Assembly: GCF_002563895.1 (NCBI RefSeq)
Contig: NZ_PDJB01000001.1
Location: forward strand, 3,703,501 to 3,767,500
Source: Pseudomonas lurida
GTDB lineage: Bacteria > Pseudomonadota > Gammaproteobacteria > Pseudomonadales > Pseudomonadaceae
DNA length: 64,000 bases
Direction of reading: 5' to 3'
Part shown: piece after piece, positions 3,188-45,543 of the stretch
How the letters are laid out: each line of letters opens with the position of its first letter
How positions within the stretch are numbered: the first letter of the stretch is position 1
Program-made: the position numbers and the translations under genes
The notes under the pieces: model-generated
Databases searched by the model: none
What the model saw: the letters and a program-made list of their open reading frames with translations, nothing else
What the model was told of the DNA's origin: nothing

Positions 3188-3703
3188 ATGCCCCGGCGCC
3201 TATTCAAACGGTACATGCCCGACCCCAGCAGTATCCGGGAACACAAGTCATTACAGTTTCTCGGTACGTTGCTGCATGACCCGAACCTCTGGCACCTCAA
3301 CCGGCACTCGGTCGCACGCGCCATGGCCGTGGGGTTGTTCGCGGCTTTTATTCCGATTCCGTTGCAGATGCTGCTGGCGGCGGTCCTGGCGATCACAGTG
3401 CGCGGCAACATGCCCATCGCGGTCAGCCTGGTGTGGCTGACCAACCCGATTACCATGCCGGTGGTCTTCATCTGTACCTACATGACCGGCGCCTGGCTGA
3501 TGAATGTGCCACCTCGCAGCCTGCCCGATGACCTGACCTGGGAATGGATCAGCGGCCAACTCAGCACGGTATGGCAGCCATTCCTGCTGGGGTCGGTGGT
3601 GTTGGGGCTGGTGCTGGGCGCACTCGCCTACTGCCTGACCATGGGCTATTGGCGCTGGTGGGTGGCCCACCAGTGGAAAAAACGCAAACAGCGGCGCGCT
3701 TAG
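3188..3703 (+). CDS. DUF2062 domain-containing membrane protein
   Basis: 171 residues with a basic N-terminus (PRRLFKRYMPDP) and about three hydrophobic segments: AVGLFAAFIPIPLQMLLAAVL, ITMPVVFICTYMTGAW and LLGSVVLGLVLGALAYCL. The tail is strongly basic (KKRKQRRA). The pattern and the TNPITMPVV motif match DUF2062 proteins, which have no established function and are often linked to comEC in pseudomonads. It is divergent from comEC, sharing a 135-base promoter region. It converges on the downstream kinase gene so tightly that the two stop codons overlap (TAG at 3701-3703, the opposite TAA at 3700-3702). Confidence 0.85.
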   Translation: MPRRLFKRYMPDPSSIREHKSLQFLGTLLHDPNLWHLNRHSVARAMAVGLFAAFIPIPLQMLLAAVLAITVRGNMPIAVSLVWLTNPITMPVVFICTYMTGAWLMNVPPRSLPDDLTWEWISGQLSTVWQPFLLGSVVLGLVLGALAYCLTMGYWRWWVAHQWKKRKQRRA

Positions 3704-5070
3704 CAGGCCCGCAAGCGCAGGTGCACGCGCAAACCTTGCCCGGTATTTTCCGCCCACAGGCTGCCGTCCTGGCGTTGCACCGCATTGCGGGCGATGCTCA
3801 GGCCCAGGCCGAAGCCGCCATCGCCGGGGCGTGAACCGTCCAGGCGGGTGAAGGGCGCGAAGATCCGCTCCAGGTCGCCCTCATCGATCCCACCGCCCTG
3901 GTCCTCCAGCCACACATGCCAATAGTCCCCCTCGCGACGCCCATCCAGGCTGACCACGCCGCCCGCCGGCGAATGGCGGATGGCGTTGCGCAGGATGTTT
4001 TCCAGGGCCTGGGCCAACGCATTCAGGTTGCCGCGCACCCAGCACTCTGCGCCCAGCAGGCAGGGCAAGCGCGAGAACGGCCAATCGCTTTCGAAGCATG
4101 CGTTTTCGCGCAGCATGTCCCATAACGCCTGCAGCTGGATGTTTTCCTGGGGCAACGGCGCCCGCTCAGTGTCCAGCCAGGCCAGTTGCAGGCTGTCCTC
4201 CACCAGGCGCTGCATGGCGTCGATCTCACGGCCCAGCCGCTCGCGCAACTGCGCCAGGTCTTGCTCGCTGTCACAGGCCACTCGCAAGCGGCTAAGGGGT
4301 GTGCGCAGTTCATGGGACATGTCCCGCAGCAGTTGCTGCTGCAATACCACGGTGCCCTGCAGACGCTCAGACATATGGTCGAACGCCCGGCCCAGCTCGC
4401 CCAGTTCATCCTGGCGACTGGTGGCGTCGTGGGACATCCGTGTATTCAACTGGTCGGCGCGCCAGGCGTTGGCCTGCTCGCGCAATTGATTGAGGGGCAT
4501 GATCAGCAATCGATACAAGCCGATGCACAGCAGCAGGGTAAACAGGCCGGGGATCACCCCATTGGTCACCACCCGCCAGAACAGTTGATAGCGTCCCGGC
4601 ATGAAGCGCTGCGGCAACTCGATCACCAGCGAACCCGCATCGGGGTCAGCAGGAAACGGGATCTTCAGCCACGGCAGGCCTTTGACATGCCGGCTCACCG
4701 GCCAGTCCAGGCCACGCAGAAAGGTCAGGCGCTGGCTTTCCTTGTCGGTCAGCGGGTAGCTGCTCAACGACTGCAGGTCGTTGCCGATCACGCCTATCCA
4801 GGTGGTTTCACGCTTGCCCATCGCCTCCAACCACGCCTCGACGCCTGCGCTACCGCCGCGGTTCCAGGCCTGTTCGGCGCCAACCGCGTACCCCCTCAAG
4901 GTGTTACGCGCCTCGTCGGACAAGTAGGCGTTCTGCTGCTCCATGTACCGGCCCCACGACCAACTGAGCCAGATCATCAGCAGACAGAAGGCGATCAGCA
5001 GGCATGCCAGCTTCCAGAATAACGAGTGCTTGCCCGGCAGCCGTTTCAGGGGGCGCTCAAAGGCTGTCAT
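3700..5070 (-). CDS. Two-component sensor histidine kinase (HAMP-HisKA-HATPase)
   Basis: A 456-residue inner-membrane kinase. The first membrane helix is at about 19-37, a periplasmic sensor region at 40-165, the second helix at about 170-191 and HAMP at about 192-245. The HisKA phosphoacceptor is His253 in DMSHELRTPLSR. The ATPase domain has the N-box ENILRNAIRHS (357-367) and the glycine boxes DQGGGID and GFGLGLSIA. All catalytic motifs are intact. It follows the regulator gene with a 14-base overlap, the usual arrangement for a cognate pair. The short periplasmic domain resembles RstB/CpxA-like sensors, but the stimulus cannot be inferred and no symbol is given. Confidence 0.92.
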   Translation of the reverse strand: MTAFERPLKRLPGKHSLFWKLACLLIAFCLLMIWLSWSWGRYMEQQNAYLSDEARNTLRGYAVGAEQAWNRGGSAGVEAWLEAMGKRETTWIGVIGNDLQSLSSYPLTDKESQRLTFLRGLDWPVSRHVKGLPWLKIPFPADPDAGSLVIELPQRFMPGRYQLFWRVVTNGVIPGLFTLLLCIGLYRLLIMPLNQLREQANAWRADQLNTRMSHDATSRQDELGELGRAFDHMSERLQGTVVLQQQLLRDMSHELRTPLSRLRVACDSEQDLAQLRERLGREIDAMQRLVEDSLQLAWLDTERAPLPQENIQLQALWDMLRENACFESDWPFSRLPCLLGAECWVRGNLNALAQALENILRNAIRHSPAGGVVSLDGRREGDYWHVWLEDQGGGIDEGDLERIFAPFTRLDGSRPGDGGFGLGLSIARNAVQRQDGSLWAENTGQGLRVHLRLRAC

Positions 5071-5990: not shown

Positions 5991-8744
5991 GTGCTGACAA
6001 GAATGGGGATAAAAGGCCGCGTACTGTTGCTGACCTTATTACCGACCAGCCTGATGGCCTCGTTGCTGGGCGGCTACTTCACCTGGATGCAGCTCTCCGA
6101 ACTGCAGTCCCAATTGCTGCAACGTGGTGAGATGATCGCCGAACAGTTGGCACCGCTGGTGGCTCCCGCCCTGAGCGCGCGCAACACCGACCTGCTGGAG
6201 CGCATTGCCACCCAGTCCCTGGAACAGCCGGACGTTCGCGCCGTGTCGTTCCTCAGCCCGGACCGTGCATCCCTCGCCCACGCCGGCCCGACCATGCTCA
6301 ACCAGCCGCCCATCGGCAACAGCTCGCACCTGCTGCAGCGCACCGGCAACGACGCCACCCGTTACCTGCTGCCCGTGTTTGGCCGCCATCGCAACCTCGC
6401 CGGCGACCTGATCCCGGATGAAGCCGACCGCTTGCTGGGCTGGGTCGAGGTGGAACTGTCCCACAACGGCATGTTGCTGCGCGGCTACCGCAGCCTGTTC
6501 GCCAGCCTCTTGCTGATTGCCATCGGCCTGATCTGCACCGCGGCCCTGGCGTTACGCATCAGCCGCACGATCAATTCGCCGATCGGCCAGATCAAGCAAG
6601 CCGTGGCCCAACTCAAGGACGGCAATCTGGAAACCCGCCTTCCGCCCCTGGGCAGCCAGGAACTGGACCAGCTCGCCTCTGGCATCAACCGCATGGCCGA
6701 GACCTTGCAGAACGCCTAGGAAGAACTGCAGCACAGCATCGACCAGGCCACCGAAGACGTGCGCCAGAACCTGGAAACCATCGAGATCCAGAACATCGAG
6801 CTGGACCTGGCGCGCAAGGAGGCCCTGGAGGCCAGCCGCATCAAGTCCGAATTCCTGGCCAACATGAGCCACGAAATCCGCACGCCACTCAACGGTATCC
6901 TCGGCTTTACCCATTTGCTGCAAAAGAGCGAGCTGACCCCGCGTCAACTCGACTACCTGGGCACCATCGAAAAATCCGCCGACAACCTGCTGGGCATCAT
7001 CAACGAGATCCTCGACTTCTCGAAAATCGAAGCCGGCAAGTTGGTGCTCGACAGCATCCCGTTCAACCTGCGGGACTTGCTGCAAGACACCCTGACCATC
7101 CTCGCTCCTGCCGCGCATGCCAAGCAGTTGGAACTGGTAAGCCTGGTCTACCGTGACACGCCGCTGGCACTGGTGGGTGACCCGCTGCGCCTCAAGCAGA
7201 TCCTCACCAACCTGATCAGCAACGCGATCAAGTTCACCCGCGAAGGCACCATCGTGGCCCGGGCAATGATCGAGGACGAGCAGGAAGACAGCGTGCAATT
7301 GCGCATCAGCGTGCAGGACACCGGCATCGGCCTGTCCAGCCAGGATGTGCGCGCCCTGTTCCAGGCCTTCAGCCAGGCCGACAACTCACTGTCGCGCCAA
7401 CCCGGGGGCACAGGGTTGGGCCTGGTGATCTCCAAGCGTTTGATCGAGCAGATGGGCGGTGAAATCGGTGTCGAAAGTACGCCGGGCGAAGGCTCGGAGT
7501 TCTGGATCAGCCTGAACCTGCCCAAGACCCGTGACGATGTCGAAGACCTGCCCTCCGCGCCCCTGTTGGGCCATCGCGTGGCCGTGCTGGAAAACCACGA
7601 GCTGGCCCGCCAGGCGTTGCAACATCAACTGGAAGACTGCGGCCTGGAAGTCACGCCGTTCACCAGCCTGGAAAGCTTGACCAATGGCATCACCAGTGCC
7701 CACCAGACCGATCAGGCCATAGACCTCGCGGTCCTCGGCGTGACCGCCAATGACATCCCGCCCGAGCGCCTCAACCAGCACCTGTGGGACCTTGAGCACT
7801 TGGGCTGCAAGGTGCTGGTGCTATGCCCCACCACCGAACAGATGCTGTTCAACCAGTCGGTCCCCAACCCCAACAGCCAGTTGCAGGCCAAGCCGGCGTG
7901 TACGCGCAAACTGCGCCGGGCGCTGTCCGACCTGATCAGCCCGCGCCCGTCGCGCAGCGAACCGGGCGAGCCATTGTCCAGCCGGGCACCGCGCGTGCTG
8001 TGCGTGGACGACAACCCGGCAAACCTGCTGCTGGTACAAACCCTGCTGGAAGACATGGGCGCACGGGTGCGCGCCGTGGAAAGCGGTTATGCGGCCGTCG
8101 ACGCGGTAAAACAGGACACTTTCGACCTGGTGCTGATGGACGTGCAGATGCCCGGCATGGACGGCCGCCAGAGCACCGAGGCGATCCGCCAGTGGGAGAG
8201 CGAACGCAGCGGTACGCCACTGCCGGTCGTCGCCCTCACCGCCCACGCCATGGCGAACGAAAAACGCGCCTTGCTGCAAAGCGGCATGGACGACTACCTG
8301 ACCAAACCCATCAGCGAACGGCAACTGGCCCAAGTGGTGCTGAAGTGGACCGGCCTGGCCCTGCGCAACCAAGGCCCGGAACGCGCCACCGACGGCCTCG
8401 GCCCCGGCGTGCAGCTTCCGGTGCTCGACCACGAGGAGGGGCTGCGCCTGGCGGCCGGCAAGGCAGACCTGGCAGCGGATATGCTAGCGATGCTACTGGC
8501 TTCCCTGGAGGCCGATCGCCTGGCCATCACCCTCGCCCGTGATGCCAAAGACAACAACGCCCTGATCGAGCGCGTGCACCGCCTGCATGGTGCGACCCGT
8601 TACTGCGGCGTGCCGCAATTGCGGGCCGCCTGCCACCGCGCCGAAACCCTGCTCAAGCAGGACGACGCCAAGGCCGTGCAGGCGCTGGACGAACTGGACA
8701 TGGCCATTGCCCGACTCGCCAGTGAAGCGCGGGTCAACGCCTAA
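5991..8744 (+). pseudogene. gacS: GacS hybrid sensor kinase gene, interrupted by an in-frame amber codon
   Basis: The 918-codon frame encodes the global sensor kinase of the Gac/Rsm pathway, which phosphorylates GacA and so drives RsmY/RsmZ-type small RNAs. The GTG start at 5991 has AGGAG 7 bases upstream. Domains by codon: first membrane helix 11-31, periplasmic loop to about 165, second helix 168-189, HAMP 190-242, HisKA His294 (MSHEIRTPLNG), ATPase about 340-510, receiver Asp717 and HPt His863. These numbers equal those known for fluorescent Pseudomonas GacS. Codon 243 is TAG, where relatives read Gln (CAG). Everything downstream stays in frame without other damage. The following ldhA gene is the expected neighbour. 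Translation should yield a 242-residue membrane stub without kinase activity. Confidence 0.93.
6717..6719 (+). other. Premature amber codon inside gacS
   Basis: The reading frame runs ATG GCC GAG ACC TTG CAG AAC GCC TAG GAA GAA CTG. The normal family sequence in this linker after HAMP is QNAQEELQHSIDQA, so one C-to-T transition in CAG accounts for the stop. The change creates the hexamer CCTAGG at 6715-6720. Confidence 0.9.
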
Positions 8745-8864: not shown

Positions 8865-9854
8865 ATGCGCGTCATTCTTTTCAGCAGCCAGGCCTACGAC
8901 CGCGACAGCTTTCTCGGCGAGCCGCTACCGCCGGGCCTGGCGCTGCAATTCCAGCCCGCCCGCCTCAACCTCGACACCGTCGCCTTGGCGGAACATCACG
9001 AGGTGGTCTGTGCCTTCATCAACGACGACCTCAGTGCCCCGGTGCTGGAACAGTTGGCCAAGGGCGGTACGCGGCTGATCGCCCTGCGCTCGGCGGGCTA
9101 CAACCACGTCGACCTGGTCGCCGCCAAGCGCCTGGGCTTGACCATTGTGCGCGTGCCGGCCTATTCGCCCCACGCGGTGGCCGAACATGCGGTGGCGCTG
9201 ATTCTCGCCCTCAACCGTCGCCTGCACCGCGCCTACAACCGCACCCGTGACGGCGATTTCAGCCTGCATGGCCTCACCGGTTTCGACTTGGTAGGCAAGA
9301 CCGTCGGCGTGGTCGGTACCGGACAAATCGGCGCCACGTTCGCCAAGATCATGGCCGGCTTCGGTTGCCAGTTGCTCGCTTACGATCCCTTCCCCAACCC
9401 GCAGGTGCAGGCATTGGGCGCGCATTACGTGAGCCTGCCCGAATTGCTGGCCCAGGCGCAGATCATCAGCCTGCACTGCCCGCTGACCGCCGACAGCAAG
9501 CATTTGATCAACGCCCACTCCCTGGCGCAGATGCAGCCCGGGGCGATGCTGATCAACACGGGCCGTGGGGGGCTGGTCGACACTCCGGCGCTGATAGAGG
9601 CACTCAAGGACGGCCAGCTCGGCTACCTGGGGCTGGATGTGTATGAGGAAGAAGCGCAGCTGTTTTTCGAGGACCGCTCCGACTTGCCCCTGCAGGATGA
9701 CGTCCTCGCGCGCCTGCTGACCTTCCCCAATGTGATCATCACCGCCCACCAGGCGTTCCTGACGCGCGAAGCACTGGCGGCCATCGCTGGCACCACCCTG
9801 GCCAACATTGCCGCCTGGGCCGAAGGCCGGGCGCAGAACCTTGTCGAAGGATGA
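8865..9854 (+). CDS. ldhA: D-lactate dehydrogenase / 2-hydroxyacid dehydrogenase
   Basis: A 329-residue cytoplasmic enzyme of the D-isomer-specific 2-hydroxyacid dehydrogenase family, interconverting pyruvate and D-lactate with NADH. The Rossmann motif GVVGTGQIG lies near residue 148. The catalytic Arg234 (NTGRGG), the Glu in LDVYEEE and the acid-base His295 (AHQAF) are all present. Features typical of fermentative LdhA are the SAGYNHVDL substrate-domain motif and the LFFEDRSD loop. GGGAG stands just upstream of the ATG. Linkage to gacS is conserved in Pseudomonas. The 120-base spacer after gacS holds a 10-base inverted repeat (8753-8762 and 8828-8837). Confidence 0.93.
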   Translation: MRVILFSSQAYDRDSFLGEPLPPGLALQFQPARLNLDTVALAEHHEVVCAFINDDLSAPVLEQLAKGGTRLIALRSAGYNHVDLVAAKRLGLTIVRVPAYSPHAVAEHAVALILALNRRLHRAYNRTRDGDFSLHGLTGFDLVGKTVGVVGTGQIGATFAKIMAGFGCQLLAYDPFPNPQVQALGAHYVSLPELLAQAQIISLHCPLTADSKHLINAHSLAQMQPGAMLINTGRGGLVDTPALIEALKDGQLGYLGLDVYEEEAQLFFEDRSDLPLQDDVLARLLTFPNVIITAHQAFLTREALAAIAGTTLANIAAWAEGRAQNLVEG

Positions 9855-45052: not shown

Positions 45053-45543
45053 AGCACCAAAAACTGACTGGCGAGTCGTATTAGACTAAAGATGTAGTGC
45101 TTGAAAAAAAGCACTACAAACCATTTGACGATCCAAAAAAGCATGGGCATGATGGCCTCGCTCCCGCTAATCAGGGGCCCTGGCAAGGGCCTTCGGATCG
45201 TCGCTCTAAGCTACCCACCTGAGCCGATTCGTGTCTGTACTGCCCACAAGGCGTGTTTGACGAGGTTGCGACTGGAACGAAGTTGTCCCGAGGGACGGAA
45301 GCTAACCAGGTAACCCGGCTACACGCTGTTGAACATCCGAGGGCCCACGACGCCTGAAGACCGTTCTCGGTCCGCCTGTACCTACTCCACCCTCTCGCCA
45401 ATCGTTCATCCCGTCGCATTCCCCGCCATACCCGACATGACCGCCTAAGCTTCTGGTCAGCGAGCAGCCCTGCCCACGCATCTGAATGCAGGGCTGGCAA
45501 ATGGATTTTTCCACCACAAGAAGACGCGACGAGGTTTACTTCC
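45053..45543. other. Gene-free region upstream of aceA
   Basis: 491 bases without a coding frame. A 9-base inverted repeat at 45094-45117 (GTAGTGCTT, six-base loop, AAGCACTAC) lies 42 bases past the previous stop and has no T run on the plus strand. On the minus strand a run of T falls in its loop. The remainder presumably holds the aceA promoter and a long leader; no clear promoter boxes were identified. GAGG precedes the aceA ATG. Confidence 0.5.

What the first reader, a model, noticed from the sequence alone, without database searches (positions are those of the whole stretch)
5991..8744. gacS carries an in-frame amber codon at position 243, predicting a Gac-negative strain
Seen: the 918-codon GacS frame is intact except for TAG at 6717-6719, exactly after HAMP. 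His294, Asp717 and His863 all lie in frame downstream. Known: relatives have Gln here (QNAQEELQHS), and spontaneous gacS/gacA mutants arise often in fluorescent Pseudomonas in culture or on roots. Inference: one C-to-T transition abolished the kinase. Expected effects are low RsmY/RsmZ-type RNA levels and loss of GacA-dependent exoenzymes, siderophore balance and antibiotics. A sequencing error is possible, since it is a single base.
Basis: partly seen in the sequence, partly recalled or inferred. Interest (0 to 1): 0.85.

Follow-up and report, generated by a model that had tools for sequence, protein, structure and literature searches.

The report
Broken gacS regulator gene in Pseudomonas
A soil- or plant-type Pseudomonas carries a stop signal in the middle of its only GacS sensor gene, which most likely switches off a master regulator; this is a well-known kind of loss mutation, so the case is probably real but ordinary.

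Summary
gacS (5991-8744, +) has an in-frame TAG at 6717-6719, just after HAMP; the frame is open on both sides, and His294, Asp717 and His863 lie downstream. No second GacS was found in the complete one-contig genome, and none of 64 tRNA places reads amber. All 80 named relatives, and all 28 assessable unnamed ones (partly the same genomes), have a sense codon there. A database protein identical to the window on both sides of the site, except for a six-residue tail, has no stop. GacA, RsmY, RsmZ, three CsrA-family genes, two 7TMR-DISM kinases and RpoS are present and open. No clear sign of relaxed selection, so the stop is probably recent.

Best explanation: a spontaneous loss mutation giving a Gac-negative strain. 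The kind is known: sequenced Pf0-1 has a gacA mutation, and four other Pseudomonas genomes seen here carry their own gacS stops. A sequencing error cannot be excluded without reads. Re-initiation of a soluble kinase, which could give the opposite phenotype, is unlikely at the usual start codons but not excluded. Interest is low to moderate.

The parts
5991..6719 (+). gacS 5' part: 242 codons (sCache_4 sensor, HAMP) ending at the internal TAG
6717..6719 (+). in-frame TAG, codon 243 of gacS
   Evidence: sense in 80 of 80 named loci and 28 of 28 assessable unnamed loci, sets that overlap
6720..8744 (+). gacS 3' part: open frame with HisKA (His294), HATPase_c, receiver (Asp717), Hpt (His863)
6759..6761 (+). 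GTG, first usual start codon in frame after the stop; weak ribosome-binding context
6825..6827 (+). CTG in frame with a strong Shine-Dalgarno-like stretch just before it; only a rare kind of start codon
5057..5797 (-). divergent response regulator next to gacS, open
   Evidence: ORF list; role judged by eye
3700..5070 (-). histidine kinase next to that regulator, open
   Evidence: ORF list; role judged by eye
8865..9854 (+). ldhA-like dehydrogenase downstream, open
   Evidence: ORF list; name recalled

Best explanation
A recent spontaneous nonsense mutation in the single gacS gene. Translation ends after the sensor and HAMP domains. The kinase, receiver and Hpt domains are then not made in useful amounts, GacA is not phosphorylated through GacS, RsmY and RsmZ stay low, and RsmA/RsmE-type proteins keep their targets repressed. 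Shown here: the stop, its position, no second copy found, sense codon in relatives, pathway genes present, no amber-reading tRNA found. Inferred: loss of kinase, low sRNAs, phenotype, recency, and whether it arose in culture or on a plant.
For: TAG with open frame on both sides. One GacS in one complete contig of 6,311,648 bases. P0042 is identical over 120 of 120 residues before the site and 199 of 205 after it, the six differences being its tail, and has no stop. GacA open. RsmZ and RsmY over cut-off with GacA-type boxes upstream. No CTA anticodon at the 64 tRNA places found. Low dN/dS in both pieces, and unique changes within the range of 28 relatives. Precedents: a gacA mutation in sequenced Pf0-1 (PMC3390384, passages); gac mutations selected on Arabidopsis roots (PMC8219802, passages).
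Against: No reads, no other isolate of known identity, no phenotype. The window's C-piece dN/dS against its three nearest usable relatives (0.0145-0.0189) is about two to four times that of two control pairs (0.0043, 0.0066), though below the third (0.0264). Re-initiation or low readthrough is not excluded; a CTG at 6825 has strong Shine-Dalgarno-like pairing. Missense changes in other pathway genes, which might offset the loss, were not tested.
Confidence: 0.8

Rival explanations
1. A consensus error in the assembly, or a mixed culture in which only some cells carry the stop.
For: Single base; no reads at hand. [quoted passage not shown]
Against: One complete contig, 100% complete, 0.16% contamination. 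Genes recognised by eye next to gacS look full-length in the ORF list (not compared systematically with relatives). Errors left in finished genomes are more often indels than substitutions (recalled).
Confidence: 0.1
2. Split kinase: ribosomes re-initiate after the stop (GTG 6759, or CTG 6825) and make a soluble GacS without sensor and HAMP, which is signal-blind and may be constitutively active, so the strain would be Gac-on.
For: The C piece keeps all three phosphorelay residues. A review says that deleting the HAMP domain gives strong signal-independent activation (PMC7695008, passages). CTG 6825, ahead of HisKA, follows a strong Shine-Dalgarno-like stretch (-7.3 kcal/mol). Four of the 120 listed proteins are 661 residues long with only the C part (P0132, P0156, P0188, P0201); they may be gene-caller products or contig edges and were not fetched.
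Against: GTG 6759 pairs weakly: -2.5 against -7.4 kcal/mol at the true start, which is the median of 71 other in-frame internal ATG/GTG/TTG codons; 34 of those 71 are stronger. ATG 6864 is weaker still (-1.5). CTG is a rare start (recalled). GTG stands at 6759 in 53 of 80 relatives. The fragment would lose the membrane anchor and HAMP. Caveat: several start codons taken from the ORF list in the same window also pair weakly, so weak pairing alone does not decide.
Confidence: 0.06
3. The stop is read through by a suppressor tRNA or natural leakiness, leaving enough GacS.
For: A constrained C-terminal frame is expected, and seen.
Against: No amber-reading anticodon at the 64 tRNA places found; one tRNA-Gln only. 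The same constraint is expected for any recent stop.
Confidence: 0.03

Closest known systems
Spontaneous gacS/gacA mutants of fluorescent Pseudomonas (P. protegens evolved on roots, PMC8219802; gacA mutation in sequenced P. fluorescens Pf0-1, PMC3390384; passages seen)
   Same: Lesion in the GacS/GacA pair of a strain whose other pathway genes are present
   Different: Here gacS, a nonsense codon right after HAMP; no phenotype known; strain unnamed
Other gacS in-frame stops met here: G031 (L184, codon 654), G098 (L185, codon 436), G206 (L186, about codon 52), P. vranovensis DSM 16006 (L076, about codon 771)
   Same: In-frame stop with matching sequence in the same frame on both sides
   Different: Other positions; independent events
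GacS/BarA/LetS family (NCBIfam NF008318, NF045901)
   Same: Both pieces match BarA over the expected profile ranges
   Different: Reading frame interrupted

Membership tests
GacS (BarA-type tripartite sensor kinase) | sensor (sCache_4), HAMP, HisKA, HATPase_c, receiver, Hpt in this order | tested here: met
   pieces scanned apart
GacS (BarA-type tripartite sensor kinase) | one uninterrupted reading frame | tested here: not met
   TAG 6717-6719: a broken gacS, not a working member
Spontaneous gac loss mutant | lesion absent from close relatives | tested here: met
   80 of 80 and 28 of 28, overlapping sets; P0042. No named isolate of the same species was available
Spontaneous gac loss mutant | rest of the pathway (GacA, Rsm RNAs, CsrA proteins) present | tested here: met
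   RsmX only below cut-off
Spontaneous gac loss mutant | Gac-negative phenotype | not testable with these tools
   needs cultures
Old pseudogene | relaxed selection or further lesions | tested here: not met
   no second stop before the natural end; few unique changes; dN/dS low but above two of three control pairs in the C piece

The most novel reading that the evidence does not exclude
A natural split GacS: the stop separates a membrane sensor-HAMP piece from a soluble kinase-receiver-Hpt piece made by re-initiation, giving a signal-blind Gac-on strain instead of a Gac-negative one.
Probability: 0.05. Interest if true: 0.6.

Novelty: new member of a known kind. Interest (0 to 1): 0.27.

Why it matters
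Anyone using this genome as a reference should treat the strain as probably Gac-negative: missing exoenzymes, metabolites or siderophore changes may come from one regulatory lesion and not from gene content. It also adds to a visible frequency of gacS stops in Pseudomonas reference genomes (four others met here).

Tried and rejected
Old pseudogene: not supported. Of the 14 relatives compared, five rows (L101, L104, L106, L111, L112) were meaningless because minus-strand loci had not been turned, and likewise three of six control pairs. These were dropped and their dN/dS was not recomputed. The unique-change count was redone with 28 turned loci (L115 left out, contig end).

A second gacS copy: none found (150 of 167 candidates scored). 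An amber suppressor tRNA: none found (64 places, 150 of 166 candidates scored). RsmX: two hits below cut-off, one of them RsmY itself; the only box-like match near the other has 3 mismatches, where 74 of 200 shuffles have at least one match.

G223 also starts at a contig edge (position; one search finds only the last 87 N-piece residues). G206 is a stop about codon 52 in an assembly of 1150 contigs. G376 changes frame inside gacS; assembly error not excluded. G384 (96% complete) and G316 (78% complete) have no match at 1e-90; not followed.

'stops_inside' of the genome search also counts a gene's own terminal stop (L094), so G031 and G098 were checked by sequence.

My first background for ribosome-binding energy took its N-part codons out of frame and counted 6759 itself. 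One search repeated it without 6759 but with the same frame fault; one search mended it and is the one cited.

Paper searches listed nothing that I recognised as this allele; as the strain is unnamed this is weak. I saw passages of four papers (PMC7695008, PMC3390384, PMC8219802, PMC5924801) and the outline and abstract of one (PMC11841057). PMC5770548 is not held.

Full report
What is there. The frame starting with GTG at 5991 runs 242 codons to TAG at 6717-6719 and goes on open from 6720 to the TAA ending at 8744. The first piece holds sCache_4 (residues 35-168) and HAMP (190-240); the second holds HisKA, HATPase_c, receiver and Hpt. BarA is the best NCBIfam hit of each. The stop separates the sensing half from the whole phosphorelay half.

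Is it the only copy? No other was found. In the own genome (one contig, 6,311,648 bases, 100% complete) the C piece matches itself. The next match by score is 35% identical over residues 15-544, the next after it 48% over 13-300, and one short piece reaches 51% over 181-252. The 35% match lies in the 950-codon frame that also carries a 7TMR-DISM domain, so it looks like RetS (inference).

Relatives. Of 80 named GTDB loci, 80 have a sense codon at the site. Of 29 unnamed relatives fetched, 28 were assessable and all 28 are sense. The frame is open in 78 of the 80 named loci; L021 ends at a contig edge, and L076 (P. vranovensis DSM 16006) has an in-frame stop about codon 771. Protein P0042, whose source is not shown, equals the window over 120 of 120 residues before the site and 199 of 205 after it (only its last six differ) and has no stop there. 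P0109, also without a shown source, is a 907-residue GacS-type protein covering the whole C piece at 98%. So intact copies exist near this strain.

How often does gacS break? Of 398 genus genomes, 395 match the C piece at 1e-200, one match each, and the 150 best are listed, the own genome among them. Of the other 149, three have in-frame stops in gacS: G031 at codon 654, G098 at 436 and G206 about codon 52. The rate is a lower bound, since 245 matches were not listed and stops in the N part were looked for only through the listed frame lengths. G376 shows frame changes. The search with the N piece found 108 shorter relatives; many are marked partial or lie on short contigs, so this is loose support.

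Age. Against the three nearest usable relatives by C-piece score (L100, L102, L103) dN/dS is 0.009, 0.029 and 0.016 in the N piece and 0.0145, 0.0147 and 0.0189 in the C piece. Over all nine usable rows of 14 the ranges are 0.009-0.044 (N) and 0.0145-0.042 (C). Three usable control pairs of six give 0.021, 0.023 and 0.046 (N) and 0.0043, 0.0066 and 0.0264 (C). The window's C value is above two of three controls, a point against a perfectly clean record. In the 29-way comparison the window has one unique residue change and three unique synonymous ones in the C piece, and none and one in the N piece; the 28 others have 0-4 and 0-3 unique residue changes. This shows no long decay, but it cannot date the stop within the species.

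Pathway. GacA is over its cut-off and open. RsmZ and RsmY are over cut-off. An exact GacA-type box lies about 60 bases upstream of RsmY and one with one mismatch about 170 bases upstream of RsmZ; at up to three mismatches 78 of 200 shuffles of that locus have at least one match, so the second box rests on its place and quality. RsmX is not supported. Three CsrA-family genes, two 7TMR-DISM kinases and RpoS are open. No null suppressor among these is visible; missense changes were not tested.

Rescue routes. None of the 64 tRNA places found has anticodon CTA, and there is one tRNA-Gln. The first usual start after the stop, GTG 6759, has a pairing energy of -2.5 against -7.4 kcal/mol at the true start; that is the median of 71 other in-frame internal ATG/GTG/TTG codons, 34 of which are stronger. 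ATG 6864 has -1.5. Against my reading, CTG 6825, just ahead of HisKA, has -7.3, and several start codons taken from the ORF list in this window pair weakly too. Re-initiation is thus unlikely but not excluded. It matters because a review on GacS reports strong signal-independent activation when HAMP is deleted (PMC7695008, passages), so a soluble fragment could give the opposite phenotype.

Known context. PMC3390384 (passages) reports that sequenced Pf0-1 has a gacA mutation with Gac-negative traits, and that one cannot know whether it arose before isolation or in storage. PMC8219802 (passages) found mutations in the GacS/GacA genes in 8 of 10 mutualist isolates evolved on roots. PMC11841057 (outline and abstract) reports inactive type VI secretion and altered volatile emission in a gacS deletion of P. 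fluorescens MFE01. The present allele fits this known kind.

Verdict. The lesion is in the sequence as described and is probably a recent, strain-level loss of GacS. The kind is well known; only the allele is new, unless the split-kinase reading proves true.

Noticed in passing
window 45170-45381 (+): Rfam match to SrbA, an sRNA regulator of biofilms (94.4 bits, cut-off 69)
   Followed up: no
L184 (G031), L185 (G098), L186 (G206), L076 (P. vranovensis DSM 16006): In-frame stops in gacS of other Pseudomonas reference genomes, at codons 654, 436, about 52 and about 771
   Followed up: partly
L188, L189 (G376 C25:80748-82302); G384: gacS of G376 falls into several frames; G384, 96% complete, has no GacS match at 1e-90
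   Followed up: partly
P0132, P0156, P0188, P0201: Four listed database proteins of exactly 661 residues hold only the C half of GacS, the length that GTG 6759 would give; they may be gene-caller products of other broken or cut gacS genes
   Followed up: no
P0027: A protein named as Nematostella vectensis is a Pseudomonas-type GacS fragment (67% identical), probably contamination of that genome
   Followed up: no
P0120, P0126: Two P. tolaasii GacS-type entries of 706 and 909 residues; the short one lacks the sensor domain and may reflect known variation at that locus (recalled)
   Followed up: no
L009 and L013: Two GTDB species genomes are both titled P. marginalis ICMP 3553 (or 3553_3) yet differ in identity to the window (91.7% and 85.9%), so one label may be wrong
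   Followed up: no
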